Of a DNA stretch of 64,000 bases, positions 5,830-61,396 are shown piece after piece. The notes below the pieces were generated by a model. It was not told the origin of the DNA, ran no database searches, and was given only the letters and a program-made list of their open reading frames with translations. The number at the start of each line of letters is the position of its first letter. Position 1 is the first letter of the stretch. A program made the translations under genes and the position numbers. Origin of the DNA: Oscarella lobularis (taxonomy: Eukaryota; Porifera; Homoscleromorpha; Homosclerophorida; Oscarellidae); NCBI RefSeq assembly GCF_947507565.1, contig NC_089176.1:3410001-3474000 (forward strand), in the 5' to 3' direction.

Positions 5830-7760
5830 ATGCTGTTGGAAGTCGCAATCTCTTTCGTGCTTCTAGCTTCGACCCTCGACGCGTCTCCGGCTCCGCAGAA
5901 CTACGAAGCCAATCCCTCCGCCAAAGTGAGTCAACTACCAGCCACGTCTAGACCGGCGGCATTTTTTTTCTTTAGGAAATAGCCGACGCCGTGAAGGAGT
6001 TCATCTCAGGCGGTCCGGGAAGCGTAGGAGCGGGAGCGAAGGTTTGTACAACGATGATATCATAACACCGATCGATGTCAGTACATGATGTATTATGAAG
6101 GCTTTGGCTGCGGAAATAGTGAGCCTCGTCAAAGACCAGTGCAACATAAACGGCGGCTATGACAACGGCGATGGAGAAGGCGCCGGCGCCGGCGGAGAAA
6201 TAACAAACATCGCTTTGGGAAAAGTAGCCGTGCAAAGTTCTGTCTGCTGCGGCAACGCGTTTGCTTCGCGCGCCGTCGACGGCAACACGGAGGGTAACTA
6301 CAACCACGGCAGTGTGACGCACACGAACAACGAAGACCAGCCCTACTGGCGAGTCGATCTCGGTCGTTCGTGCGTCGTTCAAAAAGTCGTCGTTTTTAAT
6401 CGAGTTGACTGTTGCGGCGACCGTCTCCAAAATTACGACGTCTTTCTTGAAGATTTTGCTTTCCGGCCTATCAAGACCTACTTTCACGGATCGGGAGTGC
6501 TGGAGAAAATCGAATTCGGCGGCGACGCTCTCGTTCGCGGCGTCGAACACGTGCGCGTGCAATTGCGCGGAAAGAATCCTCTCAGTCTCGCCGAAGTTCA
6601 AGTGTTCGGGCACTGCAACGTCCCACGAACCGGCTTCGATAACGTCGCCTTGGACAAGTACGCGTTCCAAAGTTCGACGATCAACCACGCCCTTAAGCCC
6701 GTCGCCGCGAAGGCCGTCGACGGTAATATCGACGGCAATTTTGGGGTTGGAAGCACGACGCACACGAATAACAATAATGGGGCCTGGTGGGAAGTTGATC
6801 TTGGTCATACAGCCGAAATAGCCACCGTTCTCGTCTTCAATCGAGTCGACTGCTGCGGCGACAGACTCGCCAATTTCAAGGTGATTCTCTACAATTTCGC
6901 TCATCAGACGGTGGATACGCTTCACGAAGCGGGCGGCGGAGAACTCGAGTACGGATTCGTCGTCGCTCCTCCGAAAAATGCGCGATTCGTTCGAGTCCAA
7001 TTGCTTGGAACGAACTCTCTCCAATTGGCCGAAGTTGAAGTGTTTGGGAAGCTACTGGGAGGTGAGAGGAAGCGAGTCCCGTTTTAGCCTGAAATATATA
7101 CACAACGTTCTTTCAGGATATGAAAACGTTGCGGTGGGTAAGGCAGCCTCACAAAGTTCGACCCTTGCCAATGCTTACAATCCAATTGCGGACAAGGCCG
7201 TCGACGGTCTCGTCGATGGTCAATGGGACGTTCGAAGCACCACCCACACGAATCATGAAGCAAAGCCTTGGTGGGAGGTCGATTTGGGAAAAGACGAGAT
7301 TATTTATGGCGTTGCAGTTTATAATCGACTTGACTGCTGCGGTGATAGATTGCAGAATTTCGACGTTTCGCTGACGGATGCATCGGGACAGGTAACCAAG
7401 ACTACTCATTTTGGAGTCGGAGTTCTCGTCACCTATCCTGTGCACATTCCAAACGGAGTTGTAGCAAGAAAAGTCAAAGTTCAACTGCGGGGAACCAATT
7501 CTATGCAGCTGGCTGAAGTGGAAGTTTGGGCCGGTAATGGCTTCCTTTTCCCCGGCTTCAGGTTATTTTGACACTCCTGTTTTTTCATAGGAAGTCGCAC
7601 GTGCGGAGGCACAGGAAATGGAGGTCGCTGTGCTTTTCCTTTCACTCACAAGGGCGTAGAGTACAGCGCCTGCACCTCCGCTGGTGGCAATCGCCCGTGG
7701 TGTGCTACCAAGCCGGGCGACTTGAGTATTCATAACGAGTGGGGCTTCTGCTTTTGCTGA
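5830..7760 (+). CDS. Triple F-type lectin + fibronectin II protein, copy 1
   Basis: Five exons: 5830-5925, 5976-6041, 6101-7061, 7117-7533 and 7591-7760, about 569 aa. Exon 1 is a signal peptide (MLLEVAISFVLLASTLDAS). Exons 2-3 begin with a short helical N-region. Exon 3 holds two F-type lectin (fucolectin) domains, exon 4 the third, and exon 5 a fibronectin type II module with CAFPFTHKG and a GFCFC end. All three lectin domains carry the eel-agglutinin fucose motif H-x26-R-x-D-C-C-x-x-R: THT plus NRVDCCGDR, NRVDCCGDR and NRLDCCGDR, including the paired cysteines known to form a vicinal disulfide in that family. Secretion and fucosylated-glycan binding are inferred from family. Exons 4 and 5 each begin after phase-1 introns, the classic phase for module shuffling. 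This is the first of five tandem copies. Confidence 0.93.
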
Positions 7761-7931
7761 GAAATTAACTTGGGTTTGATTGGATGGACTTATTTGCTGG
7801 TCTCTGTTTTTCTTTGCTCTATGTCTCTGCGCACGCAATGTACTGTCTATGTATGCTTTGATGTTTATTAAAAAATTGACTTCCCATATAACTGGTCTCC
7901 TCGGCTGGCTGGCGTCACAGAGAAACAAAAA

Positions 7932-9855
7932 ATGCTCTTGGGAGTGCTGTCTCTCGCGCTTCTCCTAGCTGCCACACCTAAAGCGTCGCCAATTCTGCAG
8001 GGCTATGAAGGCAACGGCCCCTCTGCCAAGGTGAGCCGAAGAGCGTTTGCAGGCTAATTAGCTAAATAAGAAAGATTTTCGCAGGAAATAGCAGACGCTG
8101 TACAAGAGTTCACGGAAAGCGGAGTGAAGGTTTAGCGATTGATTTTCTAAGTACCGTATAAATGACGTACCTGTTCAGACCGTGGCGGAAGAAATATTCA
8201 ATCTCGTCAAAAAAAAGTGCAATGTCAGTGACGAAAACGGAGGTTCACCGCCTGGCGAAGGCGGAGGCGCCGGCGGAGAAATAACAAACATTGCTTTGGG
8301 AAAAGTAGCCGTGCAAACTTCTATCTCTCACGAACACGCGTTTCCGTTCCGCGCCGTCGACGGTGAAACGAACGGTGACTTCTCTCACAACAGCGTGACA
8401 AAAACGAAGATCGAAGACCGGCCTAGCTGGCGAGTCGATGTCGGTCATTCATGCGTCGTTCAAAAAGTCGTCATTTTCAATCGAGTCGACTGCTGCGGCG
8501 AACGTCTCCAAAATTTCGACGTTTCCCTCGAAGATTTCGCTTTCCGGCCTATTAAGACCTACTTCTACGGATTGGGAGTGCTGGAAAAATTTGAATTCGG
8601 CGGAGACGATCTTATTAGCGGAGTCGAACACGTGCGCGTGCAATTGCGCGGAAGGAACGTTCTCAGTCTTGCCGAAGTTCAAGTGTTTGGGCGCTGCAAC
8701 TCCCAGCGAACCGGTTTCGACAACGTCGCCCTAAACAAGTACGCGTTCCAAAGTTCGACGCACACACACGCCGTTAAGCCCGTCGCCGCGAAGGCCGTCG
8801 ACGGTAACATCAGCGGGCGATTTTTCACTGGAAGCACGGCGGTTACAAATAAGGATGATAGAGCCTGGTGGGAAGTTGATCTTGGCCATACAGCCGAGAT
8901 AGCGACCGTCCTCGTCTTCAATCGAATCGACTGCTGCGGCGAGAGGCTCGCCAATTTCAAGGTGATTCTCTACAATTTTGCTCATCAGACGGTGGATACG
9001 CTGCACGAAGCGGGCGGCGGAGAACTCGAATACGGTTTCGTCGTCGCTCCTCCGAAAAACGCGCGATTCGTTCGAGTTCAACTTCTTGGAAAGAACAACC
9101 TCCAGTTGGCCGAAGTTGAAGTGTTTGGAAAGATAATTGGAGGTGAGAAAGGAAGCGAGTCTATATGTTTAACCAGATAATTATGTATACCAATACGACA
9201 TTTCCAGGATATGAAAACATTGCGGTAGGTAAGGCGGCCTCACAAAGTTCGACCCGTGACAATGGTTACAATCCAATTGCGGACAAGGCTGTTGACGGTC
9301 TCGTCGATGGTCAGGTACTAGAAAGCGTTACCGTAACGAATAAAAAAGCGGGAGCTTGGTGGGAAGTTGACTTGGGAGCGAACGAGATTGTCTATGGTGT
9401 TACCATCTATAATCGACTCGATAATTGCTGCAGAAGTAGATTGCAGAATTTCAACGTTTCACTGACGGATGCATCGGGACAGGTTACCAAAACTACTCAT
9501 TTCGGAGTCGGGGTTTTTGTCACCTATCCTGTGCACATTCCAAACGGAGTTGTAGCGAGAAAGGTCAAAGTCCAACTCCGAGGAACCAACTATTTGTCGT
9601 TGGCTGAAATGCAAGTTTGGGCTGGTAACATTCTTTGCTTTTCAGCGTTTCTTGAATATAATGATATTTTTAATTTTAATAGGAAGTCGTGCCTGTGGCG
9701 GCACAGGAAATGGGGCTCGGTGTGCTTTTCCTTTCACTTACAAGGGCGTCGAGTACAGTGCCTGCACCTCCGTGGGTAGAGATCGCCCGTGGTGCGCTAC
9801 CAAGCCAGGCGACTTGAGTACTCACAACGAGTGGGGATTCTGCTTCTGCTCATAA
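7932..9855 (+). CDS. Triple F-type lectin + FN2 protein, copy 2 (His-less)
   Basis: Five exons: 7932-8030, 8085-8129, 8179-9142, 9208-9624 and 9683-9855, about 565 aa. Architecture and intron phases match copy 1, and it begins only about 170 bp after copy 1's stop. The signal peptide is MLLGVLSLALLLAATPKAS. The frame is intact, but the fucose-coordinating histidine is absent in all three lectin domains: SVTKTKIEDRP, STAVTNKDDRA and SVTVTNKKAGA replace the THT context of the sisters. The R-x-D-C-C-x-x-R half persists in domains 1 and 2. In domain 3 it reads NRLDNCCRSR, with one extra residue between Asp and the second Arg. The FN2 module is complete (CAFPFTYKG ... GFCFCS). It is probably expressed and secreted, but with altered or lost fucose binding. 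Confidence 0.92.
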
Positions 9856-10366
9856 GTCAAAACTTGCTTATTGATTCGCTGTTCTTCGTCTCTTTTGTCT
9901 GTGTGCGTGCGTGTGTTTTGATCAGTATCTCTTCTATGCGCTGTATGTGAAACAGAACGGCAACTTCTTCGCATATATCTCGATCAAACTGCTCAAAATG
10001 CTCATACACTCTGATTTGATCAATTATTGACCCAGACGATAGGTTGACGTCGTAGTAGGCACGTACGGCCAAAACCTTCTCAGAACAGTCTTCAGCTAAC
10101 GTAGTGACTATACACGTCTAGCTGTGGGTAGTGCAGCAATCGCTCGCCGTCACGGTGCCGTATATACAACCAAGACAGCTAGGCGTGAAGCGTTATAGCT
10201 TCTGCTGAGCCAAACTTGGTCTTCCGAGGCTCTTTGTTTTGTTATCTCCTAACTAAACAACGTCCGGGGAAAATTCAGGTAAGCATCCGCCTACGGCGTG
10301 GATCGAATGTCCACTCAACGGAAAGGCGTTAGCCCGTGACCCAGGTAACTCGGATCAGTTGACAAA
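9856..10366. other. Spacer between lectin copies 2 and 3
   Basis: About 510 bp. It contains the 3' end of copy 2 and the promoter of copy 3; a TATA-like tatata lies near 10156. I see no gene here. Confidence 0.4.
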
Positions 10367-12292
10367 ATGTTCTTTGGAGTGCTGCCTCTCGCGCTTGTCC
10401 TAGCTACTACACTTGAAGCGTCTCCAACTCTCGATGAAGGCAACAGCCCCTCTGCCAAGGTACGTGGGCCAAAAGATCAGCAACTTCCACAGGATACAAA
10501 AATTTCCGTAGGAAATAGCGAACGCAGTGAAAGAGTTCACGGGAAGCGTAGGACCGGGAGCGAAGGTTGAGCGATACATATTCATAAAATCTCGTATACT
10601 AAATTTAATGACGTACCGGTTCACAGGCATTGGCAGCGGAAATATTCGATCTCATCGAACAGAAGTGCACTAACAATGGCGGCGGCGGCGGCGGCGCATC
10701 GCCTGGCGAAGGCGGAGGCGCCGGCGGTGAAATAACAAACATCGCTTTGGGAAAAGTAGCCGTGCAAACTTCTGTCTGCTGCGGTAACGCGATTGCGTCG
10801 CGCGCCGTCGACGGTAGCACGGATGGGGCTTACAGACACGCCAGCGTGACACATACGAAGAACGAAGATAGGCCTTACTGGAGAGTCGATCTCGGTCGTT
10901 CGTGCGTCGTTCAAAAAGTCGTCATTTTCAATCGTGTCGACTGCTGCGGCGAACGTCTCCAAAACTTCGACGTCTCTCTCGAAGACTTCGCTTTCCAACC
11001 TATTCAGACCTATTTCCACGGACTGGAAAGGAAGGCTAAATTTGAATTTGGCGGCGACGCTCTTATTAGCGGAGTCGAACACGTACGCGTGCAATTGCGC
11101 GGAAAGAATTATCTCAGTCTCGCCGAAGTTCAAGTGTTCGGGCACTGCAGCGTCCAGCGAACCGGCTTCGACAACGTCGCCTTGAACAAGTACGCGTTCC
11201 AAAGTTCGACGCTCAACCACGGCCTTAAGCCCGTCGCCGCGAAGGCCGTCGACGGTAACATCGACGGAAAGTTTAACGTTGGAAGCACGACGCACACGAA
11301 GAACGATAACGGGGCCTGGTGGGAAGTTGATCTTGGCCATACAGCCGAGATAGCGACGGTTCTCGTCTTCAATCGAGTCGACTGTTGCGGCGAGAGGCTC
11401 GCCAATTTCAAGGTGATTCTCTACAATTTTGCTCATCAGACGGTGGATACGCTGCACCAAGCGGGCGGCGGGGAACTCGAATACGGGTTCGTCGTAGCCC
11501 CTCCGAAAAATGCGCGATTCGTTCGAGTTCAACTTCTTGGAAGGAACTACCTCCAGTTGGCCGAAGTTGAAGTGTTTGGAAAGTTAATTGGAGGTGAGAG
11601 GAGAAACGATTCCAGTTGTCCTGATAAGTTATGTACACAACGTTTTTAGGATATGAAAATATTGCAGTAGGCAAAGCGGCCTCACAAAGCTCGACCCTCT
11701 CCCATGCCGCCAATCCGATTGCGGACAAGGCCGTCGACGGTCTCGTCGATGGTCATTTCAACGTTCGAAGCACCACACACACAAATCGTAACGCGAGAGC
11801 TTGGTGGGAAGTCGACTTGGGAGCGAACGAGATTGTCTATGGCGTTACAGTCTATAATCGACTTGACTGCTGCGGTGAAAGATTGCAGAATTTCAACGTT
11901 TCACTGGCGGATGCATCGGGTAAGGTTACCAAAACTACTCGTTTTGGAGTTGGGGTTCTTGTCACCTATTCTGTGCACATTCCAAATGGAGTCGTAGCGA
12001 GAAAGGTCAAAGTTCAGCTCCGAGGAACCAACTATTTGCAGTTGGCTGAAGTGCAAGTTTGGGCTGGTAATATTCTTTGCTTTGCAGAGTTTTCTGAATA
12101 TAATGTCTATATTGAATAGGAAGTCGTACCTGCGGTGGCACAGGAAATGGAGCTCGGTGTGCTTTTCCTTTCACTCACAAGGGTGTAGAGTACAGTGCCT
12201 GTACCTCCGTGGGTGGAAATCGCCCGTGGTGTGCTACCAAGCCAGGCGACTTGAGTACTCACAACGAGTGGGGCTTCTGCTTCTGCTCATAA
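10367..12292 (+). CDS. Triple F-type lectin + FN2 protein, copy 3
   Basis: Five exons: 10367-10459, 10512-10565, 10627-11593, 11650-12066 and 12120-12292, about 567 aa. The signal peptide is MFFGVLPLALVLATTLEAS. A glycine-rich linker (GGGGGG, encoded by GGC/GGT runs near 10680) precedes lectin domain 1 and is longer than in the other copies. All three domains keep the fucose motif: SVTHTKNED/NRVDCCGER, STTHTKNDN/NRVDCCGER and STTHTNRNA/NRLDCCGER. The FN2 module ends GFCFCS. By eye this is among the closest relatives of copies 1 and 2. It is a secreted glycan-binding protein, with the ligand inferred from the motif. Confidence 0.93.
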
Positions 12293-12491
12293 GTTAAACT
12301 TAGTCTTTGACTGATTTGTTGTTCTCTTTGCATGCTTCTCTGCCGTGTCTTGCTTTCTAGTGTCTCTTCTGCGATGTGTGGCTGCTGTTGCAAGTGTCCT
12401 CGATGTCGATTCCCACCCCTAAATTAGTAATGTCCCTGGATCTCCCTGGATCACTCCCTGGATCCACATCTGCAGCGCACGCTAAGCGACA

Positions 12492-13596
12492 ATGACATCA
12501 GAGTTGAGAACGGAGCATCTTTACTACGAGGACACATACTTATTCGAATGCACGGCTAAAGTTCTGCACATTTCCGAAGCAGATGCCGATGCCGGAACGC
12601 AAATTGTCGTAACAGATCGCACTGTGATGCATCCGCAAGGGGGTGGGTGGAGCAAGAGGAAAGGAGCAGAACTCGAACGACGTTTCTAGGCGGGCAGCCT
12701 TCCGACGTAGGAACAATTGCAAGCAAGGACGGCTCCTGCGTATTCGAGGTAGAGAAGAACTTTCATTTCCGCATCGACCCTGGAGCCGTGTAGGTCAGTC
12801 ACGTGCAAAAAACAGCACGAGACAGCGAATACGTTCAGCACGTGGGAAAATATAGGCCTGATTCTGTGGGCAGGTCTGTGTGCACGCACGTACGTAATAC
12901 ATTTTGAACTTGGTTTCTTAGCTTTGGAGATGATCCTGTAATAATATCAATCAACGAGGAAAGGAGACGACTAAATGCAAGGTTTCCCCAATGAGTTCTC
13001 CTAGGCGTGATAAAATCTTTGCTTCTACAGATTGCACAGTGCTGGGCACTTGCTTGATTCTGCTTTTGAAAAAATTGGGTGGACGCAAGATCAACTGGTT
13101 CCAAATAAGGTTAGATAAAAACGTGAATGAACATTTGTAATATAATCCTCTAAAGGGTTATCATTTTCCTGATGGGCCCTATGTTGGTAAGACGAGAGCA
13201 CAATAGTTATAGATTTGATAAGTAGTCTACTGTAGAATACACTGGAAACATTCCACCGGAAGAAAGAGGAAAGGTTATAGAGCAGCTAAATGACTCGTCA
13301 AATGCTCTTGTCAAGGTTCAAAAATTTTTTGGACAAGGTACGAATATATGCTTATTATCCTTTTAGATGGATATTCCAGTAAGTGTGGCAAAAGATGAAA
13401 AAGGTTACAATTTTTATAATAAAAGGAGGCAATAGAATTTGAAAGATATTCAGGTGGAAGGATTGTGAATGTTGGCGGAACCAAATGTCCTTGTGGAGGG
13501 ACGCACGTAAAATCAACAGGAGAAATAGGATGCATAAGAGCAACGAAGATCACAAAGAAGAAGAAAATCATAAGAGTTTCGTATGTGGTTGAGTGA
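12492..13596 (+). CDS. AlaX-type alanyl-tRNA editing protein
   Basis: Multi-exon gene starting at ATG 12492 (MTSELRTEHLYYEDTYLFE) and stopping at 13594-13596, roughly 250 aa. The signature order of AlaX/AlaRS editing domains is present: DRTVMHPQGGGQPSDVGTI early, LHSAGHLLDSAFE (the HxxxH zinc ligands) in the middle, and CPCGGTHV (the C-x3-H zinc ligands) near the end. It lacks an alanyl-tRNA synthetase catalytic core, so it is a free-standing trans-editing enzyme that hydrolyses Ser-tRNA(Ala) or Gly-tRNA(Ala) in the cytosol (family knowledge). Introns are 36-60 nt. One junction, PGAV|EYVQHVGKYR at about 12793-12830, needs a 36-nt intron and is the least certain. The gene sits on the same strand inside the lectin array, between copies 3 and 4, with no evident functional link. 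Confidence 0.85.
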
Positions 13597-14187
13597 AAGT
13601 GAACGAAAGAATGTACTGTAGGCTGCACTTGTAGTAGGCTGTGTAGTTGATAAGACAACGTTGTAGCTGTTGTAGCACTGATGAAAAGTATACCGTGCTA
13701 AAAGCCTCTGGTTATCATTCGGAGGAACTAATTTTATGCCTGTGTAGACTTGCGTGCTCCCTCAGCTGGCGACTAGCCAGTTTAGAGGAAGTGATAACCT
13801 ATAAAGTATTAGAAAGTAAACGAGACTCCGGGCGGCTAATTATTAGTGATGATCAGACTTGCGATCTGTTAGCTTCAGTGGTGTAATACGATGTTCTTGA
13901 AAGTTATACTCTCTTACATACGCTCCACCTCTGACTTCGCCGAGCCATAAAACGTCAAACGTGAAACTGCTGCTCGGAGAACGCCGTCAGGTGGATAAGT
14001 TCCGTCACAATTAGAGCAGCCCGTACAGGGGAAGTAATTAGCTGGAAGCCAAACCTTGCTTGCGACCGCGATTCCAATATGCAAGGAATCAAAGCTGACA
14101 AGCATGCGTCAGACGCTGATATTCCATATTCGCCGGGTTGTGCACGTAGAGTCGGCGACCGGACCTGTTGGCGTCAGTCGTGCCACA
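13597..14187. other. Spacer upstream of lectin copy 4
   Basis: About 590 bp with no supported gene. The last bases before the ATG (gtgccacaATGCT) match those of copy 1, so a shared initiation context and perhaps promoter was duplicated. Confidence 0.4.
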
Positions 14188-16095
14188 ATGCTCTTCAAAG
14201 TCACTGTCTCTCTCGCGCTTCTCCTAGCGGTTTCTACCCGCACTGAAGCGTCACCGAATCCAAACTATCAAAGCAGTGCTTTCATTACGAACGTTAGTTG
14301 AAAAGGCTGTTCGGCAGTCGTACGCGCCTAATCGTGAATTTCTACAGGAAATAGCGAACACCGTCAAAGAATACGTCAACAGCTCTGACGACCTAGAAAT
14401 GAGAGTGACGGTGGATAAAGTTTCCGTAGACAAGGCTCAATGACATTTGATTGTCTCGGTTTAGGAGCTGGTTGCAAAGGTTTATGATCTTCTTCGATAC
14501 AAGTGCGACCTAAGCAGAGAGGTCCCCAAAATGAGCAACATCGCTTTGAACAAAGTAGCCGTGCAGACTTCCGTCTGCTGCGGAGACGCATGGGCGTCGC
14601 GCGCCGTCGACGGCAACTCGGACGGCAACTTTTTTCACGACAGCGTGACGCACACGAATAAACACGAGCAGACCTACTGGCGAGTCGATCTCGGTGCTTC
14701 GTGCGTCGTTCAAAAAGTCGTCATTTATAATCGAGTCGACTGTTGCGGAGAGCGTCTGCAGATTTTCGACGTCACTCTCGAGGATTTCGCCTTTCGCCCG
14801 TTAAAGAGCTACTACTTCGAATGGGGAGAATTGGACAAATTCGAGTTCGGCGGCTCCGATGCGCCGCTCGTCGGCGGCGTCGAGCACGTGCGCGTACGGT
14901 TGCGTCGCAAGGATTTTCTCAGTCTCGCCGAGGTTCAGGTGTTCGGACGCTGCAACGCGGCGCGCACTCGCTTCGACAACGTCGCCTTGGGAAAGTACGC
15001 TTATCAAAGTTCGACGCAAGAATTAGTTGAAGGCGATCCTCCTGTCGCTGCTAAGGCCGTCGACGGCAACACTCTTAAACGTAGTAGCATGACGCACACA
15101 ACCAACGAGGCAGGAGCCTGGTGGGAAGTCGATCTTCGCCACACAGCCGAAATAGAGTCTATTCTATTGTTCAATCGATTTGACTGTTGCAGAGAAAGGC
15201 TTGCCAATTTCAACGTGATTCTCTACAATTTTGCCCACGAGACGGTGGCGACGTTTCACGAGGCGGGCGGCAGCAAGGATCAGTTGGAGTACGGATTCGT
15301 TGTCGCTCCGCCAAAGAAAGTGCACTTCATACGAGTCCAATTGCTCGGAACAAACTATCTCTCCTTGGCCGAAGTCGAAGTGTTTGGGAAACAGCTCGGG
15401 GGTAATTAAAAACGACTGAAAGTGAATTTTTACGCTGACGTTTTCTTCTCAGGATATGAAAACATCGCAATAGGAAAGTTGGCTTCACAAAGCTCAGACT
15501 TTAATAGTCCTTACGATCCGATTGCGGACAGAGCCGTCGACGGTCTCGTTGAAGCCCAGATTGAGTCTAAAAGCAGTACGCACACTAACAACGAGAAAAA
15601 CGCTTGGTGGGAGGTCGATTTGAGAGCAGAAGAAATTGTCTACGGCGTCACAATCTATAATCGAGTCGATTGCTGCAGCGAAAGATTGCAGAATTTCGAT
15701 GTTTTTTTGACGGACGAGTCGGGAAAAGTTACCCATACAACCTATTTTGGGGCTAAGACGCTTGTCACCTATCCTGTCTACATTCCGAGCGGAGTCGCAG
15801 CGAGGAAGGTCAAAGTTCAACTCCGAGGAACCAATTATTTGACGTTGGCCGAAGTGCAAATTTGGGCTGGTACGTAATAAAATTCTTCCCCCACTCTTGA
15901 ATGTAATACGCGTATTCAATAGGAAGTCGTACGTGCGGCGGCACAGGAAATGGAGCTCGTTGCGTCTTCCCTTTTACTTACGATGGCGTGGAGTACGACA
16001 CCTGCACTACTGCAGGCGGCAATCGGCCGTGGTGTGCTACCAAGACGGGCGACTTGAGTGCTCACGACGAGTGGGGATTTTGCTTCTGCTCATGA
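14188..16095 (+). CDS. Triple F-type lectin + FN2 protein, copy 4
   Basis: Five exons: 14188-14292, 14348-14419, 14465-15401, 15453-15869 and 15923-16095, about 567 aa. The signal peptide is MLFKVTVSLALLLAVSTRT. It is more diverged than copies 1-3 and has its own N-terminal linker (DDLEMRVTVDK). The His-Arg-Asp-Cys-Cys-Arg fucose motif is kept in all three domains: SVTHTNKHE/NRVDCCGER, SMTHTTNEA/NRFDCCRER and SSTHTNNEK/NRVDCCSER. The FN2 module (CVFPFTYDGVEY) has an intact WCATKTGDL segment and ends GFCFCS. It is probably a secreted fucose-type lectin, separated from copies 1-3 by the AlaX gene. Confidence 0.92.
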
Positions 16096-16734
16096 ACTCA
16101 TAAGTCAAACTGTGTGTTCCTTTCGTTCCCTTTTTGTTTTCTTGATGTACGTGGTCTGTGATATCAAATCTGTGTAGTGTGACGCACGAGAGCATCGCGG
16201 AGAAATCGCGACCGGGATGGCGCTAGTCAGCATAATCGGATTCTGCTTTCTCGCAACTGAAACCTCACTCTGACCGTAATAGGACGTCGCCTTTCTCGTC
16301 GCTTCCACCTCACAACTGCAAAATTCAATACAACGGTGGCTGCGAAAAAATGCGTCAGCCTGAGAGTCAGGTGGTCAGCAATTCGCAGCTGATAACAACC
16401 TAATTTTTATGAATGATCCAATTTACTCGAGACCACTTGGTGAATTTGTTGGCTTTAGTTGCGGCGGCAATGCTCTCAGTGGAAGTTGGCGCACAATAAG
16501 CGAGACTTCGTAGTACAATAAAACGTCTCTGATTCCGCAGAGCTATTAATTAATTAAGCGAGCGATAACGCCACTTCGCGGAAGGTGAGCGTCAGGTGGT
16601 GGAGCACAATTTTGTGCGATATGAATAATTCTGTCTCAAAGCCGGCGAGCGTGTGCATGTCTTCCATATTCGACTGCGGCTTTGGACGTGGATGAGTGTC
16701 CGTGACTGGACCTGATCCCTTCAGTCGCAACATA
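16096..16734. other. Spacer between lectin copies 4 and 5
   Basis: About 640 bp. I see no coding frame with family support and no clear repeat. Confidence 0.4.
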
Positions 16735-18644
16735 ATGCTCCTACCAGTCACACTCTCTCTCGCGCTTCTCCTAGCGTCTACCATCGAAGTGTCTTCGGCT
16801 CCGCAGGACTATCATCCTATTTCCCAAGTCGGTGAAACTATTCTGCGCACAATGTAGTCGACTCACTCGAAATTCTATTTTCAGGAAATAGCCAACATTG
16901 CCAGAGACTACCTAAAGGACGGCCCTGTCGATGCAGAAACGGGAGCGACGGTTAGTTTTCTTCCGCCAGGGTTCCTTATTTCGATTGGCTTGTAGGAATT
17001 GGCTGCAAAGATCTACGAAATTGTCAGAGACAACTGCGATACAGACTACGTCAGATTGCCTGGTCGCCCAGGCCCCAACGGATATATCTACAACATCGCT
17101 TATCAAAAAGTAGCCGTGCAGAGTTCCGTCTGCTGCGGCGATGCGATTGCGGCACGCGCGGTCGACGGCAACAGAGATACGTACTTCCCCCACAAGAGCG
17201 TGGCACACACGGACATAGAAGACAAGCCCTACTGGCGAGTCGATCTCGGTGGTTCGTGCTCCGTTAAAAAAGTCGTCATATATAATCTGGTTGACGATTC
17301 GGGAGAGCGCCTACAGAATTTTGACGTCACTCTCGAGAATTACGCCTTTCAACCCATACAGAGCTACTACTACGGACTGGGCAAGCGAGACAAATTCGAA
17401 TTTGGCGGCGAAGAGCTCGTAGGAGGCGTCGAGCACGTCCGCGTGCAACTTCGCGGCAGGAACTATCTCTGTCTCGTCGAAGTTGAAGTGTACGGTCACT
17501 GCGAGGCCAAGCGAATAGGTTTCGACAACGTCGCTTTGAACAAGTACGCGCGTCAAAGTTCGACGACGTTTCCCGCCTCCAACGCCGTCAATGGTAACAG
17601 CGATCCCTATAACACCGCTTCTGGCAGCATCACGGCGCACACTCAGAGCCAGTATCGCCCCTGGTGGGAGGTCGATGTTCAGGACACAGCCGAAATAGCG
17701 TCTGTGCTTGTGTTCAATCGTCTCGACTGCTGTCGCGAAAGACTCTCCAATTTCAACGTGACTCTCTACAATTTTGCTCACGAGGCGGTGGAGACGTTTC
17801 ACGAGGCGAGAGGCGGACTAACCGAGTACGGATTCGTTGTTGCTCCGCCGAAAAAAGTCAAGTTCATTCGAGTTCAGCTACTTGGAACGAACTATCTCAC
17901 ATTGGTTGAAGTCGAGGCGTTCGGAAAGCAACGCGGGGGTGAGAGCGAGGTACTGAACGCGAACTCGGCGTTGATCGGAGTCTTCGTTTTTTTTGCAGGA
18001 TACGAAAACATCGCAGCGGGCAAGGCTACGTCACAAAGCTCGACTCTTGTCCACTATTTTCTCGCTGTTGCGGACAAAGCCGTCGACGGCGACGTCAACG
18101 GCGACTTCAACGCTGGTAAAAGCAGCCACACATACAATGACGCACAAGCTTGGTGGGAAGTTAATTTGGGAGCGGACGAGATTGTCTACGGCGTCACAAT
18201 CTATAATCGAATCGACTGCTGCGGTGAAAGATTGCAGAATTTCGACGTTTCTCTGATAGATACGTCGGGTTCAGTTACCAAGAAAACCTATTTTGGGGCC
18301 GGCGTACGGGTCACCTATCCCGTGTACATTCCGAATGGAGTTGAAGCGAGGAAGGTCAAAGTCCAACTCCGAGGAACCAACTATTTGACGTTGGCTGAAG
18401 TGCAAGTTTGGGCTGGTAAATACCCTTCTTCCCTTAGAGAAGCATATGAGTGAGTAGATTTGTTTATGCAATAGGACGCCGTACATGTGGCGGAACAGCG
18501 AATGGAGCTCGTTGCGCTTTTCCGTTCACTTTCAAAGGCGTAACGTATGAGTCCTGCACTACTGTCGGTGGCAATCGTCTGTGGTGTGCTACCAGGCAAG
18601 GCAATGTGAGTACTCACAACAAATGGGGCTTCTGCTTCTGTTAG
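16735..18644 (+). CDS. Triple F-type lectin + FN2 protein, copy 5 (degenerate first site)
   Basis: Five exons: 16735-16827, 16885-16950, 16996-17938, 17999-18415 and 18475-18644, about 562 aa. The signal peptide is MLLPVTLSLALLLASTIEV. Intron 3 (17939-17998, 60 nt) has no stop and is a multiple of three, so read-through would stay in frame. Lectin domain 1 keeps the histidine (SVAHTDIED) but the second half of the site reads NLVDDSGER: the first fucose-contacting Arg is Leu and the vicinal Cys-Cys is Asp-Ser. Domains 2 and 3 keep NRLDCCRER and NRIDCCGER with AHT and SHT. FN2 is intact (CAFPFTFKGVTY ... GFCFC). This copy is therefore predicted to have two, not three, canonical fucose sites. 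Confidence 0.92.
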
Positions 18645-24278: not shown

Positions 24279-27144
24279 TTAGGAATGACTTCTCTTCAAA
24301 CCATCCATGTCAAAAGTGACTTGTTTATTTCCCACGAGCTCAAACTGAGCTCTAAGCCCGCCAATTTGTACTCCATACAAACCAGGTAAAATGGCTTCCA
24401 CGCCTCGCTTATCGACTTGAGAAACGACCGAAGGCGGAACAGACAAGTGAACGGTAGTCGACTCCCCGGGCTGAAGAAAAACGCGCGAAAAACCGTACAA
24501 TTCCTTCAGAGGAGCGTCGGGATGAGCGGTGAGATCGTTCGTCAAGAAAGCGAGCACGGCATCACTGCCAGCCAGACTACCGGTATTCCTGACAGTCACA
24601 GTGTACTGAATGGGAGTATCGTGCACGTTCAATGCATCTTCGGTCGTAAAGGTCGAGTAGAGTCGCGTGCTGCTGTCCCACGTGTAGTTGAACGTCGTGT
24701 ACGACAGCCCAAAGCCAAATTCCCACAAAGGCTTACCGGTGTAGTGACGATAGGTAATACCACCGTTGTCTCGCAAACTCATGTCGAACATGCTCCTCTT
24801 CGACACGAAATCGGACGGGTAGATCGTGTACGGAAGCCTACCGGCCGGATTCACTTTACCCAACAATACGTCGGCAATAGCATCGCCGCCCATTTCGCCC
24901 GGATAGAACGCTTCCACGATAGCCGGAACGTGTTTGGCTACCCACTCGATTGCCAATGGGCCTCCGTTTATCAATACGACTACAGTTGGCTTTTTCGTGG
25001 CGACGACTTTTTGAATGAGCTGGGTTTGAGCTCCTGGTAAGTCGAGAGTCGTTCGATCGAGACCTTCTCGTTCCTGCGTCTGATGAAGACCGACGAACAC
25101 AACGGCGACGTCGCTTGAAGCGGCGGCGGTTGCGGCGGCGTCGATCAACGACGTGTCATTGTCGTCGATGTTGCATCCCTGAGCGTATTTGATTCGTTGG
25201 GCGCCGAGCAGAGCGGTCAGCGCCTGAAGCGGAGAGTGCGAATCGACGAGCGTGTTCGTTCCGTGGTAGTTGCTCAGCAAGTCTTGAGTCGCGTTCGCGT
25301 GGGGACCAATAACGGCTAATGTGTGAATCTACGCTCAGAAATAAAATTCGAAATAGATTCGCTTTTCTTATTCACCTTTCTTTGATCAAGCGGAAGAAGA
25401 TTATCGTCGTTTTTCAGTAAGACAATCATCTGCTGAGCGGCTTCGTATGCCAGTTGCCGCGACGCTGGAGTATCAACCGACTCCGGGCCAAGACTCTAAA
25501 CACAGGGGTCAGATAAATATAATAGAGATGCATGTACCTTATAGGGAACCATCTCTGGTGGATCCATCTCACCGAGTCGAAAGAACTCTCTATAAATGCG
25601 AAACAACGCTTCGTCGACAGCCGCTTGCGGCACGAAGCCGCCGTTGACGGCGTCAAGCAAGTACGTATTGTAAAAGCTTCCGCAGTTGAGATCGCATCCG
25701 CCAAGAAGGCCCGCTTTGCACGTATCATTGCTATTATTCGTGTAGTGATGTCTGTTCTGAATGACGCTGATCGCGGAGCAATCGCTGACGATGAAACCGT
25801 CAAAGCCCCACTCGCCGCGCGCGATCGTGTTCTGATAGAGCGAATTGGCGCAGCTCGGAATGCCGTTCACCGCGTTGTACGAGCACATAATTCCCTGAAC
25901 GTGAGCGCGTTCGACGCAACTGCGAAACGGAACGAAGTAATATTCAACCAAATCCTGATCGGATACGATGGCGTTGAAGTCCATTCGACCCGTTCCATTC
26001 CAGTGCTCCAAGTCGTAGGCGCTGAAGTGCTTGCACGCGGACACAACTTTGAGATAGCGTCCGCTATTCATTGACTGGAGTCCCGTCGAGTAGTGAGCGA
26101 CGTATTCGGCCGTTAGGAACGGATCTTCGCCCGGTACTTCTTGCCCGCGACCCCAGCGCGGATCTTTGAACAGATTGACGTCCGGCGCCCAGAATGCGAT
26201 GCCCGTCACGCCCTGGTTGTGCAGCGCGCGAGCTTCGGTTGAGACCGTCTCGCCGGCTAGACTCCACAGAGTGTGATTGAATGTCGCCGCGAGGCCGAGT
26301 GCGTGCGGAAACGACGTCGGGCAGCCCGTGCTACCGCTCGCCGCCGTTCCGCAGCGACTACGAACGCCGTGTAGACACTCGGCGAATTTAAATTGCGGAA
26401 CGCCAAGTCTTGGCACTCCTGGATTTTTATTCTGCATATTTTGAATCTAAAAATAAAACGAATGAATTTGTGAGCCCCGTTCAGTTGTTGCCTCACAAGC
26501 ACACTTATACCTTTTCAATCAGTTTCAATCGAGATACCAGATCCTTTGCTCTTGTCTCCGCATCGAGCGTGTAATTGCAGTAAGCATAGGTGTTATACGG
26601 AGCAATGGTGCAGTTCACACTATCACCGGCGTCCAAGCACAAGTCGTCGTTCGCTTTCGAGCGAATTGTTCTATCGGTGGCATTGTAGACAAAAGACTGT
26701 TCGACGCTTCCCGAGCACGGCCACATCTCCACGTTGGCGCCGCTGAAGTTGGTCGAAGGAGCGGCGGCAACGCATTTTCCGTTCATGAGGCTGACAATTT
26801 CCCCGCTGGTTGTATTGTAGGTGAACTGCTCATTCCACGGCGTCTTTGACGGCCCGAAGACCTGAATGCACGACAATATTGACGTTGGTTTTCTGGCTTG
26901 CTGTATCTTCTACCTGAACGTTTGCTCCCGTATCATTCCTGTAGTTCGCTATGTCGAGCACTCTTCCGTTGATTTTGAGCTGAATGTGATCGTTTGGAGG
27001 ACCCTTCTGAACGATCTTCCACTGCTGACGAAAACCGCCGTTGCAAGTCCATAATTGGACGTTGGTGGAGCCAGGAACAGGGTCATCTTTCCCCCGAGCT
27101 GTAGCGGTCAAGAGAAAGAGGAGGCACAGTAGAGTCGTTCTCAT
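24279..27144 (-). CDS. Secreted GH3 glycosidase with ricin-type lectin region
   Basis: Five exons read in a closed frame: 27144-26914, 26861-26511, 26446-25538, 25495-25376 and 25328-24279, totalling 886 aa. The signal peptide is MRTTLLCLLFLLTATARG. Residues about 25-170 form a ricin-type beta-trefoil-like region (VQLWTCNGGFRQQWKI, VEMWPCSGSVEQSF). The GH3 N-domain has WAPDVNLFKDPRWGRGQE, KHFSAYD and the nucleophile Asp in GFIVSDCSAI. The GH3 C-domain has QEREGLDR, supplying the expected acid/base, and GEMGGDAIADVLLG. A fibronectin-III-like tail closes the protein. This is the layout of plant and fungal beta-xylosidases and arabinosidases plus a lectin module. Secretion and xylan- or glycan-type substrates are inferred. 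Its ATG lies 143 bp from the end of the aconitase gene. Confidence 0.92.
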
Positions 27145-33675: not shown

Positions 33676-36600
33676 TCAGAAAGATTCTATGTTCTCTCTG
33701 AGTTGATGCGAAACTTTGGAAAATGGTGGCCTTTCATCGGGATTCTCGCTCAGACACAATGTTGTTATATCTTTGTAAACTGAAGAGGGGGGCGCCGTTG
33801 TGGGTATCTGTGGCGTGGAACTCGGCTCTAGGTCGTTCTTCCACATTGTCCAAAGAACAACACCAAAGCTAAAACAAACGTCCAAGCCGGCTTTATCTAG
33901 ATCGTTACATTCGTCTACCTGTATACATCCAATTTCGTATACTGAACATTTCTTCTCTGTTCATTACTTTCACGAAGTTCTGGTGCGCAGTAGTTTCCAC
34001 TTCCACCCAGATTTTTCCTGTCTAATAGCCACGCAGTTTCACTATTAACACCGTGGTGGTCAGCACTCTTAAGATAATCCACATTTCTTTCCTTATAAAC
34101 GAATCGGGTAGCAAGTCCAAAATCACCGAGTTTGACTATTTCCTTGTGGATCAGAAAATTCGACGGCTTGAGATCCAAATGAATCATTCCTAAATAAAGT
34201 TCTTTTCGTTTCTGATGAAACGTGGGAGTTAATGCTGTCAGATTGTGCATATAATTCATGGCATCTGCAATTCCAGCAGCAAACTTCAACTTTTGGCGAT
34301 CGTCCATTGTCTTTGACTCTATTCTTTGATACAGATTTCCACCAGCACAATACTCCATAACAATGAATGGACAACGTTTTTCTTGCGGATACCGAAATCC
34401 GCCGCCTATCACGCGTACGACATTAGGATGCAAAGCTTTGGTCATTGTTTTCAGTTCCACTAGTTCAATGCTGTCTTTCAATTCCTTAAGAGCAACTCGT
34501 TTTCCGCCCCAAAGAGCTTTTGATACAACCCCATAATTGCCTTCGCCTATTACTTCTTTACTCTCAAGGTGATCATATTCCATTTGACGGGATCTCTCGT
34601 CTTCTTGGCGTTCAATCCTTAGCATTTTGCTGTTCTGAATGCTGTTCTGAATGAAAATCGCAAGTAATACCGCGGCTACAGTTACAAAACTAGCAACCAA
34701 TACTGATCCCAATACCCAGTTTCTGATTTTTTTTCTTTCACTGTTTATGGTGCAGTTTGATTTGTGATCAAGCTTGTAACCACTAACACAGTCGCAATTT
34801 ATTGACTGACTGTACTTTCCTAACGCAACGGATTGGGCGTCAACGCGGCATGTTCCTTCACCGCAATAATACTTGTCATCTGAGCACAGCGTGCAGTTTA
34901 GAACACTAGTTGCAGTGCCCAGCGAAGAAAGATAACTTGGACATTCTGTGCAACTCACACTGCCACCACTGGCATAGGTGCCATTATGACAAGGTCTGCA
35001 TACATCAGTCGCAAAATTGGCGGCAAAGTAACCTTGTGGGCATCCAACTCGAGCCAAGGAGAACAGGCTGTTTCCTTTGTCGGTCCACAGTCCTCCAGCT
35101 GCAACCAAGTAGGGTAAATTCTGCTCCGGCGTAGAAGAAGGAAAATTCCACAGAGCGAGAGCAGCAAATGGGCCTGGCTGTACTGGGCTACCGGATTCAA
35201 TCAAAAGAAACCACTTGGAAGCGTCGATTTGTGTCTCTTCAAGTGAAAACAACCACAACCCAGACAAAGCCATTTTGCAGTTTTCTGCGTAGTATAGGCC
35301 AAAGTCATTGAGTGATTCGCAACCTCCAGTTAAAAACATTTTTTGCCCAAAAGTGGCAACGGAGTGGAAGCAGCGGTTTCCAGGATAAATAGAATTTGGC
35401 TGTCTCGTTACTTCTTTCCATCCACCGCCATCAGAATCGTAAAGCAGCCACATGTCGTTATGACACGGACCGGAAGATTGATTAAGACCGCCGTAGACAA
35501 TCATTGCGCTTCCAACTTTTGCCGCACTGTGGCCACATCGAGCTGGGGGAGGGTTTACTTGAGAGATGTTTATCCATCTACCACTGACACCCATACTGTT
35601 GCTTGAATCAACAAGAGTAAAATTCCACATGTCGTTTGAGCAGTGGTATGAACTACATCCAACTAGTCCGCCAAAAATGATTGCAGTTTCTGCAGAAACT
35701 GCTGTGGACGAGTGGAAAAATCGACAGCTTGGGCCTTCTAAGTGGTTCTCCTCATTTTTCCAGGGGAAAAAGATTGACGTTTGGCTTGTTGAGGCTCGAT
35801 AGTTTTGGACTCCACCATAAAGAACCAAAAACGGTTTGCTTCTTAATTTGAGAGTTACTGCTGAGTAGCCAATAGCTGGCCTATTTACAGCTATACTTTG
35901 ATACCATTGCCCTGATTTGAGGTTAAGCATCCAAATTTCGTGAATAGTTTGGTCTGTAGATACTGGTGACACATTTCCAATTGCAATCATTGTGGGCCTG
36001 AGATCTTCACTGACAGTTGTCACAGTTAATGCAACCTGCTGAGTAAAAACAGCCGTTGGGGCTGTTTGGGGCTGCACCAGTTTCGTCCACGACATTTGAT
36101 ACTTTGATTGAAATGTGAAGGAAAGATTCCAGATAGATCGCTGATTGTCATTGGTGAGAATGACAGCATATTCATCAAAAGAAGACAAAGAAATGTTTGT
36201 AGTTCCTTTATCACTGCCCGGAGGATGCGGGCCCAAATCAGGGTATCCTAAAATCCGCAGATCGCTTTTAGTCAAGACAGTGCCATCATTTGGATTATAG
36301 ATAACAGGGCAAGAACTGCAGCACATTATTGCCACATTGTGCTCTCCTTTGCTATCTCTAAATTTGGCGTAAGATCCAGTAGTTCGAACGATTGACGAGG
36401 TATTGTGAAGGCAGGGAAGTTTAGTGCTAAGCTTGCTCCAGCGCTGATCAGTCACCCAATAAGTCCAAAGTTCGTGTGAAATTTCAGAATCATTTCCATA
36501 CCCTGCTGCAACAATAATACCATTGATATGAACGCTTGAAATGAGAGCATGAAAATATCTGGCCTGAGGTGTTTCGCCAAAAGATTTTAGTTCGTTCCAT

Positions 36601-37238
36601 AAATATAACTCATTCCCATCTCTCAGTACGCATTCTAACCTCCATAGATCATCAAAAACCCTGCCATCAATCCCCTTCCCACCAAACATTATTACTGATT
36701 GCTCACATCCGCAACGACTTTGAGTTGTAGTTACAGCAGCGCCGTGTCCATATCTTGATTCAGGTGCTTTCGACGTTGAAGACAGATACCATGTCTTTGA
36801 CGTCCCGCTGAACACCCACGTCTGATTGAGAGGGCGGCCTGAATGCATCTCGTGACCACCAAAGAGCACGGCCGTAGTGCTGCACAACGTCGTCAGACTG
36901 TAGTGCTGAATGTTGGGAATAGAAACGGTTGGCATAAAGAGAGAGATCCATGAGTTGAGCGCTGGCTGGAATATCCATGTAGTCGACGTGTTTTTGTCGT
37001 CAAACTGGTGACCCGGCGACACCATAAGGAGTTGCTGACCTTCAAGACCTGCAACAATGATGGGTGTTGTAGCGTAGAGAGCGCCCATTTGGGAGGGCCC
37101 GTTCTTGTTCCAGTTCGAGAACGGCTGCCACTGGTTGAAGACATTCACTGACGGCTGGAACGAGTCACTGAAGACTTTTCGTAGGCTAACAAAACCCACG
37201 ACAATAGAAAAGACAAGATTTATTGTGAGCACGCTCAT
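33676..37238 (-). CDS. Receptor kinase with kelch ectodomain
   Basis: Two exons: one very large one from ATG 37238 down to about 33930, and a last one ending at 33676-33678, about 1170 aa. A signal/anchor (SVLTINLVFSIVVGFVSL) leads to kelch blades (AVLFGGHEMHSG, VIMFGGKGIDG, LVLYGGVQN, AIIFGGLVG, MIVYGGLNQ, MFLTGGCE). An ephrin-receptor-like cysteine region follows (CPQGYFAANFA, CRPCHNGTYASGG). The membrane helix is VLVASFVTVAAVLLAIF. The kinase has GEGNYGVVSKA, the Lys of VALKELK, HLDLKPSNFLI, LGDFGLA and CAPEL. HLDLKPSN and overall look suggest a tyrosine-kinase-like (TKL) Ser/Thr kinase rather than a classical RTK. Residues needed for catalysis are all present. The ligand is unknown; kelch propellers outside the cell are unusual. 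Confidence 0.88.
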
Positions 37239-37520
37239 CTTGTCTGTAACTCAAGGACAATCAGAGCCTCATGTGACTCTGGTTTCGGTCACGTGAGTAG
37301 AAACTCAATTCTTTTAGAAGCCCTTTACAACAATTCAAATAAATTGTAAAGCAAATCGGGCAGTGAGACACTTCCTGGCTCTGGGAAGCCTGGGGACTCC
37401 GGAGGGACTCCCGGGACTCCCCGGACTCCAGGGAAGAAAAAAGGGACGTCGTTCTAGCGTGCGCACCATAGAGTCTGCGTTCCCTGCATCATCCCCTCAC
37501 TCGTCCTCTCTGGACTTCTG
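37239..37520. promoter_or_regulatory. Divergent promoter with GGACTCC repeats
   Basis: A 282-bp region between the kelch receptor kinase (-) and COX11 (+), likely a bidirectional promoter. Around 37392-37432 the octamer gggactcc and close variants recur about four times. Confidence 0.5.
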
Positions 37521-60300: not shown

Positions 60301-61396
60301 TCTATAAAGTAAGAGAAGAGTACAGTTTAATTGTTGTTCCTAACTTCGTTAATTAAAAAACTTTCTTTAGAAAGTTGCGAAAAGAACGACCGGGTAAAAT
60401 TCTTATCAATCTGTGCATAGCAATGATTTTTGGCTTGGCTTTCTTCGTCGCTTATGCCGTAAATTGGGGCAATAGTGCCATGTGCACGGCGACGGCATTT
60501 CTTCTGCACTACTTTTGGCTGGCGTCAATCTGCTGGATGGGCGTTGAGGGAGTCAACATGTACATGAGCCTCGTTAGAGTTTTGGGCACCTACGTTCATC
60601 GATTTGTTTTGAAAGCGGGCCTTGTCGCTTGGGGTATGTATTGGCCGCCGCTACACGAGCTGCCGCACGCCTGTTAGAAACTGAAGTCTTTATTTTTAGG
60701 TCTTCCTCTTCTTGTGATTGCTGCAACAGCCGCAGGTGACTATGACAACGGATACAAGAAGACCGATGAAAGCGTAATGTAAGAGTTTATCACGACAGCT
60801 AGTTCTTCCTGGAAGGATGGCCTTTTTTGTTTAGCTGTCGTCTGAGCGTTCCATTATTTTACGGCTCTTTCTACGGTATCTTGGCCATCATTCTTATATT
60901 TGACATCATTATTTTTGTATTGGTTATGCGAACGATAACAAAGCGAAGCAAAGCTCTTGGTATAGCCAAACGAAAAAAGCAGAACAACGCAAGACGGGCC
61001 ATAGCTGTCAGTATTCTTCTTGGCTGCAACTGGATATTTGCCGTGACGGCTTCGGACGACGAAACTGGTGCCACAGTTCGGCTTGTCTTTGACTATCTAT
61101 TTGCCATTACGGCGTCATTTCAAGGATTCCTGATTTTTGTTTTTCATTGTTTTTTGCGTGAAGAGGTGCGTCAGGCATGGAAGACGATGCTCTGTTTTCG
61201 ACGAAGCGTCTTGGATTCTAGTACGGATACGGGAAAGGCTCTCAATTTGTCGCACACTCCTGCTTCTCACTCAAATTTGGGTACCACAAGCATTTCGTCG
61301 CCTGGCTCAAACTTAGCGGTAGCCAATCCTGTGGCAATTGAGATGGCCAAGATGAAGGAAGATGGAGCGCTTGGAGATTCGGACCAAGCCGCCTAA
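57312..61396 (+). CDS. EGF-repeat adhesion GPCR, copy 1
   Basis: About twelve exons from ATG 57312 to TAA 61394-61396. The signal peptide is [20 protein letters not shown]. An unrecognised module of about 110 aa with paired Cys follows ([15 protein letters not shown]). Next are a Cys-rich segment (CHDDCAGPCSG) and four to five EGF repeats (DECASQPCHNDGTC, NECASTPCANGGTC, PCESNPCLNNGTC), a hormone-receptor-like stretch (CPDNNPAAGVATRTC) and a GAIN domain closed by a GPS motif (CSCTHLTNFAVLV, autoproteolysis expected at His-Leu/Thr). Seven helices follow: the first is SIISYIGCSLSLLGLTV, the third HYFWLASICWMGVEGVN, the sixth ISILLGCNWIF-like. The tail is Ser-rich. It is a family B2 receptor. 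Intron 1 holds a minisatellite (57748-57870). It is the tandem partner of the gene at 63147. Confidence 0.92.
57748..57870. repeat. Intronic minisatellite
   Basis: About seven imperfect units of an 16-22 bp G-rich motif (cagtttcgaagggggcga) lie inside the first intron of GPCR copy 1. The equivalent intron of copy 2 (63553-63617) has no array, so the expansion followed the duplication. Confidence 0.85.

What the first reader, a model, noticed from the sequence alone, without database searches (positions are those of the whole stretch)
5830..18644. Five-gene tandem array of triple F-type lectin + FN2 proteins
Five same-strand paralogues with an identical exon plan (signal peptide, short linker, two lectin domains, one lectin domain, FN2) give 15 F-type lectin domains in 13 kb. 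F-type lectins in threes joined to a fibronectin type II module are an unusual architecture, and both module-bounding introns are phase 1, the phase used in exon shuffling. The array looks like a diversifying secreted glycan-recognition system. Domain identity rests on the His/Arg-x-Asp-Cys-Cys/Arg motif; the role is inference.
Basis: partly seen in the sequence, partly recalled or inferred. Interest (0 to 1): 0.75.

Follow-up and report, generated by a model that had tools for sequence, protein, structure and literature searches.

The report
Five-gene fucose-lectin array, one rewired
An animal-type genome carries five neighbouring genes for secreted proteins, each with three fucose-lectin domains and a fibronectin type II end; they are real lectins of a known family in an unrecorded combination, and one copy has a rebuilt sugar-binding site in all three domains.

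Summary
Five intact five-exon genes lie on the + strand at 5830-18644, each coding signal peptide, helical segment, three F-type lectin domains (FTLD) and one C-terminal FN2 module. The window holds exactly 15 FTLDs and five FN2 modules. FTLD identity is firm by sequence, by profile and by a pLDDT 96.5 model. All copies are old (whole-gene dS 0.29-0.90) and constrained (framework omega about 0.2), so they are not pseudogenes or assembly duplicates.

Two corrections. The fucose motif HX26RXDX4R is intact in 11 of 15 domains, not all. An unrelated AlaRS-editing-like gene interrupts the array between copies 3 and 4.

The new point is copy 2. It lost the sugar-binding His in all three domains (K, V, V) yet kept Arg-x-Asp-Cys-Cys-Arg. 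Its lineage concentrates replacements in the pocket loops (18 of 42 codons against 13 of 240 in the framework); copies 1 and 3 show no comparable burst. I read this as pocket re-specification on a conserved scaffold. Positive selection proper is suggested, not proven.

It is a new variant of a known kind. Organism, expression and ligands are unknown.

The parts
5830..7760 (+). Gene G1: five exons (5830-5925, 5976-6041, 6101-7061, 7117-7533, 7591-7760); 569 aa; FTLD x3 + FN2; fucose motif intact in all three domains
   Evidence: splice model; Pfam; motif
7932..9855 (+). Gene G2: exons 7932-8030, 8085-8129, 8179-9142, 9208-9624, 9683-9855; 565 aa; FTLD x3 + FN2; motif His replaced by K, V, V in D1, D2, D3 while R-x-D-C-C-R is kept; Asn inserted before CC in D3; CDR1 Cys pair of D1 lost
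10367..12292 (+). Gene G3: exons 10367-10459, 10512-10565, 10627-11593, 11650-12066, 12120-12292; 567 aa; FTLD x3 + FN2; motif intact in all three domains
   Evidence: D3 modelled at pLDDT 96.5
12493..13600 (+). Unrelated gene interrupting the array (approximate extent); first part reads MTSELRTEH...HPQGGGQPSD, alanyl-tRNA-synthetase editing/AlaX-like
   Evidence: sequence; Pfam tRNA-synt_2c E=6e-6, 25.5 bits, below the curated cut-off of 30.3; 3' extent not modelled
14188..16095 (+). Gene G4: exons 14188-14292, 14348-14410, 14465-15401, 15453-15869, 15923-16095; 564 aa; FTLD x3 + FN2; motif intact in all three domains
16735..18644 (+). Gene G5: exons 16735-16827, 16885-16950, 16996-17938, 17999-18415, 18475-18644; 562 aa; FTLD x3 + FN2; D1 lost the motif Arg and the Cys-Cys pair (NLVDDS) but kept His; D2 and D3 intact
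6206..6634 (+). G1 lectin domain 1 (type D1; the same domain at 8287-8715, 10738-11166, 14537-14971, 17092-17520)
   Evidence: coordinates; D1 clade support 100/99
6635..7060 (+). G1 lectin domain 2 (type D2; also 8716-9141, 11167-11592, 14972-15400, 17521-17937)
   Evidence: 100/99
7119..7532 (+). G1 lectin domain 3 (type D3, on its own 1-1 exon; also 9210-9623, 11652-12065, 15455-15868, 18001-18414)
   Evidence: (100/100)
7591..7757 (+). G1 FN2 module (also 9683-9852, 12120-12289, 15923-16092, 18475-18641); six Cys in each, the four usual FN2 Cys plus one more near each end
   Evidence: fn2 41-48 bits in all five; best solved relative MMP-9 FN2, E 9e-22; Cys counts
6101..6205 (+). G1 helical segment and linker with one conserved Cys (LAAEIVSLVKDQC; equivalents in all copies), candidate inter-chain disulfide site
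   Evidence: invariant Cys in alignment A2; total Cys odd, 17, in G1, G3, G4; role is inference

Best explanation
This is a tandem family of secreted, soluble, multivalent F-type lectins. Each subunit offers three fucose-type binding sites at the tops of three jelly-roll domains. It is probably linked into oligomers through a short N-terminal helix with a conserved unpaired cysteine, and it carries a C-terminal FN2 module that could dock on collagen or another matrix or cell-surface partner. A three-domain ancestor formed first and was then duplicated in tandem. G1, G3 and G4 keep three canonical fucose pockets each, and G5 keeps two. G2 has had the pocket loops of all three domains rewritten, losing the 4-OH-coordinating His but keeping the Arg-x-Asp-Cys-Cys-Arg floor, on an otherwise conserved scaffold; it most likely binds a different ligand. 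Likely role: recognition of fucosylated (and, for G2, other) glycans on microbes or own cells. Shown: gene structure, domain identity, motif status, paralogy, constraint, loop-focused change in G2. Inferred: secretion, oligomerisation, FN2 partner, sugar specificity, biological role.
For: Intact genes and domains. The PDB search with domain 3 alone hits only F-type lectins. The 15-domain profile scores F-type lectins at 82-152 bits and the next family, CBM32-like, at 22. The model matches lectinolysin and pneumococcal fucose-binding modules at Z about 25 and eel and bass lectins at Z 21.5-22.2, with other folds at 19 or less. Motif HX26RXDX4R is intact in 11/15. Framework omega is 0.16-0.26 between copies. 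D1, D2 and D3 each form one clade across genes. On the G2 lineage, loops have 18 nonsynonymous and 1 synonymous codon changes of 42 against 13 and 19 of 240 in the framework, Fisher p 2e-9; G1 gives p 0.71 and G3 p 0.03. At residues named as sugar contacts in eel agglutinin (PMC5712786) G2 replaces 8/24 against 32/338 elsewhere, p 0.002. Loop omega on the G2 branch is 1.42 against 0.40, p 0.006. His-less, RxDCCxxR-keeping domains recur in bacteria, so that state can persist.
Against: No expression, ligand or localisation data. Loop omega on the G2 branch is not significantly above 1 (p 0.42) and pN/pS there is 1.09, so relaxed constraint on the G2 pocket is not excluded. G2 was singled out after inspection: about five branches could have been chosen, so p 0.006 becomes about 0.03. 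The loops were first drawn after seeing the alignment, although the contact-residue test uses published positions. The full exon-3 model was poor (pLDDT 45.6), so domain arrangement and helix are not modelled.
Confidence: 0.7

Rival explanations
1. G2 (and G5 domain 1) simply lost sugar binding. The pocket is under relaxed selection while the scaffold is kept for another job, such as FN2-mediated binding, hetero-oligomer assembly or acting as a non-binding decoy.
For: Loop omega on the G2 branch does not differ from 1; pN/pS is 1.09 in the loops; the framework remains constrained (omega 0.35, below 1 at p 0.0017). Published F-type lectins with a replaced basic triad are thought possibly inactive (PMC5712786).
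Against: The floor residues R, D, C, C, R are kept in all three G2 domains while all three His are gone, which is patterned rather than general decay. The nonsynonymous rate in G2 loops (26/97 sites) exceeds the synonymous rate of its own framework (21/171), p 0.004. His codons changed at two or three bases. His-less domains with the same floor form arrays of up to five in one bacterial genome.
Confidence: 0.3
2. The G2 loops were pasted in by gene conversion from a divergent, unsampled paralogue, rather than changed step by step.
For: Changes are clustered, 11 of 18 replaced loop codons differ at two or more bases, and total nucleotide change in the loops is raised (33/126 against 38/720).
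Against: No better donor exists in the window: most loop blocks match best the same position in G1 and G3, and the D3 CDR2-3 block matches nothing above noise. Three or more separate short tracts would be needed in one gene.
Confidence: 0.2
3. The proteins are gamete-recognition factors, like oyster sperm bindin, rather than immune or symbiont-handling lectins.
For: Oyster bindins are 1-5 tandem FTLDs with change focused on the pocket, and some repeats lack the basic triad (PMC5712786).
Against: Five separate genes with fixed domain number, no intron inside the FTLDs, and an FN2 module, none of which is described for oyster bindin. No sperm expression data.
Confidence: 0.2
4. The domains are ordinary discoidin or CBM32 galactose-binding domains and not F-type lectins.
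For: Pfam names them with the general F5/8 type C models.
Against: All nearest solved relatives by sequence and by fold are F-type lectins, well separated from CBM32; the diagnostic motif is present in most.
Confidence: 0.02

Closest known systems
MsaFBP32, striped bass tandem F-type lectin (PDB 3cqo)
   Same: Secreted soluble tandem FTLDs; best sequence match in the PDB
   Different: Two FTLDs, no FN2; introns split each FTLD (PMC5712786), whereas here no intron falls inside an FTLD
Eel agglutinin AAA (PDB 1k12)
   Same: Fold, His-26 residues-Arg-x-Asp-4 residues-Arg spacing (His52, Arg79, Arg86), vicinal Cys pair, CDR-focused variation among isoforms
   Different: Single FTLD; all eel isoforms keep the His (PMC5712786), G2 does not
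Oyster (Crassostrea) bindins
   Same: Multiple FTLDs per protein, changes focused on the pocket, some repeats without the basic triad
   Different: A small number of genes with variable repeat number by splicing, an intron in each FTLD, and no FN2 described (PMC5712786)
FTLDs of bacteria (lectinolysin lectin domain, pneumococcal fucose-binding modules; arrays in Bryobacterales MAG PMTT01)
   Same: Closest fold matches (Z about 25) and, for the fetched loci, 36-49% identity; arrays of up to five; a His-less subset exists
   Different: Bacterial proteins, no FN2 found in the 77 loci
Mannose receptor group (C-type lectin domains + FN2)
   Same: Lectin domains combined with one FN2 (PMC3269628)
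   Different: Different lectin fold and membrane-bound; FN2 lies before, not after, the lectin domains (own knowledge)

Membership tests
F-type lectin (FTLD) family | FTLD jelly-roll fold, nearest to solved F-type lectins rather than other galactose-binding-like domains | tested here: met
   G3 D3 model pLDDT 96.5; top 10 Z values 21.5-25.4 all F-type, next 18.9; profile 82-152 bits against 22
F-type lectin (FTLD) family | Fucose motif: His, then RXDX4(R/K) | tested here: met
   Intact in 11/15 domains. Not met in G2 D1-D3 (His lost) or G5 D1 (Arg lost). The review prints HX24R but its own residue numbers His52 and Arg79 give 26 intervening residues, as found here
F-type lectin (FTLD) family | Cation-site motif h2DGx (AVDGN-like) | tested here: met
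   A-V-D-G in 14 of 15 domains, A-V-N-G in G5 D2
F-type lectin (FTLD) family | Binds L-fucose | not testable with these tools
   Needs protein and a glycan array
Fibronectin type II module | Four-Cys FN2 profile | tested here: met
   PF00040 41-48 bits against cut-off 22.2 in all five; MMP-9/MMP-2 FN2 best relatives
Fibronectin type II module | Collagen/gelatin binding | not testable with these tools
   Known for MMP and fibronectin FN2; not implied for every FN2
Oyster bindin-type gamete lectins | Intron inside each FTLD and variable repeat number | tested here: not met
   No intron inside any FTLD; three FTLDs in all five genes
Oyster bindin-type gamete lectins | Sperm acrosomal expression | not testable with these tools
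   No expression data

The most novel reading that the evidence does not exclude
An early-branching animal keeps a secreted three-site lectin family in which one paralogue, G2, has switched away from fucose by parallel replacement of the same coordinating His in all three domains, driven by positive selection. That would give a natural set of fucose and non-fucose readers on one scaffold.
Probability: 0.3. Interest if true: 0.65.

Novelty: new variant of a known kind. Interest (0 to 1): 0.45.

Why it matters
FTLD joined to FN2 is absent from the family review read here (PMC5712786) and from full-text searches, so the domain combination appears unrecorded in open literature; the main database survey of FTLD architectures could not be read. 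The G2 copy is a clean natural experiment: three pockets in one protein lost the same key residue while sister proteins kept it, so the contribution of that His to sugar choice can be tested with natural sequences.

Tried and rejected
Generic discoidin identity: rejected. Pseudogene or recent assembly duplication: rejected, since dS between copies is 0.29-0.90 with intact frames. Further copies in the window: none. Positive selection across the whole array: not supported, omega well below 1. A statement that omega exceeds 1 on the G2 loops: not significant, so withdrawn as a proof. Argument that losing His but keeping R/D/C/C/R is by itself improbable: weakened, because 83 of 145 bacterial domains with R, D and R kept also lack the His, mostly from one MAG. 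Window genome search: none held. Single-protein scan of genome contigs, viral scans and phage tblastn: no relatives; the alignment scan of genome contigs found 318 relatives, all listed ones bacterial. Whole exon-3 structure: low confidence, not used. tRNA and Rfam searches to place the organism: nothing. Literature on FN2 with F-type lectins, and on F-type lectins in Oscarella: nothing relevant. The Glycobiology 2015 survey of FTLD architectures is not held, so 'unrecorded' is limited to open-access text.
Full report
Observation. I rebuilt all five genes from the sequence. Each has five exons, GT-AG introns of 45-65 bp, an ATG, one open frame and a stop, and the outer coordinates agree exactly with the finding. 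The intron phases are 0, 0, 1, 1. No intron falls inside a lectin domain, and domains 1 and 2 share an exon.

Identity of the modules. Pfam gives F5_F8_type_C_2 and F5_F8_type_C in two or three stretches, plus one fn2, in each protein. These Pfam models are general. Using domain 3 of G1 alone against the PDB returns only F-type lectins: bass MsaFBP32, the lectin domain of Sm-hPAF/lectinolysin, pneumococcal fucose modules and eel agglutinin. A profile of the 15 domains scores these at 82-152 bits and the next family at 22 bits. A model of G3 domain 3, built with 117 relatives, has mean pLDDT 96.5. Its ten best structural neighbours are all F-type lectins, Z 21.5-25.4, with a drop to 18.9 for the next fold. 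The FN2 module is closest to FN2 repeats of MMP-9 and MMP-2 and has six cysteines in every copy.

The array. The window holds exactly 15 such domains and five FN2 modules. A tree places all 15 in one group (100/98), and D1, D2 and D3 each form a clade with support 100/99 or better. The triplication of the domain therefore came before the duplication of the gene. Synonymous distances between genes are 0.29-0.90 and framework omega is 0.16-0.26. The copies are old and conserved, not fresh or decaying. An unrelated gene whose first part resembles the alanyl-tRNA synthetase editing region lies between G3 and G4; its 3' end was not modelled.

Binding sites. Eel agglutinin holds the fucose 4-OH with His52, Arg79 and Arg86, with Asp81 and a Cys82-Cys83 disulfide in CDR4, and CDR1 and CDR2 around the pocket (PMC5712786). 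The spacing H-26-R-x-D-4-R is intact in 11 of 15 domains. Exceptions: G2 has Lys, Val, Val in place of His in D1, D2, D3, with one Asn inserted before Cys-Cys in D3; G5 D1 has Leu for Arg and Asp-Ser for Cys-Cys. In D1 a second Cys pair sits in CDR1 in G1, G3, G4 and G5. G2 lost that pair and kept the CDR4 pair, whereas G5 did the opposite, so each pair probably closes on itself (inference).

Copy 2 in detail. Comparing only codons where G1 and G3 agree, the G2 lineage has 18 replacing and 1 silent codon change in 42 loop codons, and 13 replacing and 19 silent in 240 framework codons (Fisher p 2e-9 for replacements; silent changes do not differ, p 0.33). The same test gives p 0.71 for G1 and 0.03 for G3. 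At contact residues named in the literature, G2 replaces 8 of 24 against 32 of 338 elsewhere (p 0.002), while G1 replaces 0 of 16 and G3 1 of 17. A codon model gives loop omega 1.42 on the G2 branch against 0.40 elsewhere (p 0.006, about 0.03 after allowing for five branches), but omega 1 is not rejected (p 0.42). In the framework G2 has omega 0.35, below 1 (p 0.0017). Counting bases along mutational paths gives pN/pS 1.09 in the loops. Against the framework's own silent rate the loop replacement rate is about twofold higher (26/97 against 21/171, p 0.004). The burst is therefore real and aimed at the pocket. Whether it is adaptive, relaxed, or pasted in from another copy cannot be settled from one genome; no donor is visible in the window.

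Control from relatives. A scan of genomes of 84,980 prokaryote species found 318 relatives, of which 77 loci were kept. Among 164 domains in these loci R, D and R are kept in 145, and the His is absent in 83 of those, largely in one Bryobacterales MAG with arrays of up to five His-less domains. This weakens any claim that G2's state is improbable in itself, but it shows that the His-less, RxDCCxxR-keeping form can persist in arrays, which favours a working alternative pocket. None of these loci carries FN2. In the tree the window domains group with bacterial ones rather than the fish lectins, but invertebrate lectins were not available, so no transfer is claimed.

Mechanism, marked by basis. 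Shown: three FTLDs plus FN2, intact motifs in 11 domains, constraint. Known for the family: FTLDs bind fucose through the triad; multi-domain and oligomeric FTLs cross-link glycans (PMC5712786). Inferred: secretion (hydrophobic N terminus and no later membrane segment, judged by eye), oligomerisation through a short helix ending in an invariant Cys (odd total of 17 Cys in G1, G3, G4), and FN2 docking.

Organism. Not identified. Neighbouring EGF repeats, a secretin-type 7TM receptor, a KY-like domain, a kelch-kinase protein and introns of about 50 bp point to an animal or a close relative with a compact genome; a sponge would fit but this is not shown.

Verdict. A real, well-formed lectin array with a domain combination not found in the open literature I could search, plus one paralogue whose three pockets were rebuilt together. 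New variant of a known kind, interest 0.45.

Noticed in passing
window 12493-13600 (+, approximate): Gene with an alanyl-tRNA-synthetase editing/AlaX-like start sits inside the lectin array between G3 and G4.
   Followed up: partly
window 33918-37250 (-): Single 1111-aa open frame joining kelch repeats to a protein kinase domain.
   Followed up: no
window 24282-26446 (-): Glycoside hydrolase family 3 enzyme in two open frames, N- and C-terminal domains.
   Followed up: no
window 58016-61393 (+): EGF-like repeats followed by a secretin-type 7TM segment, possibly one adhesion-GPCR-like gene.
   Followed up: no
window 7761-7931: Only 171 bp separate the G1 stop from the G2 ATG; one ATTAAA lies in between.
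   Followed up: partly
L001, L003, L004, L006-L009 and others, contigs PMTT01 (Bryobacterales MAG palsa_130): Large expansion of F-type lectin-like domains, up to five per open frame, nearly all lacking the fucose His but keeping RxDCCxxR.
   Followed up: partly
PMC5712786 motif text: The review prints the fucose motif as HX24R, while its own residue numbers (His52, Arg79) give 26 residues in between.
   Followed up: yes
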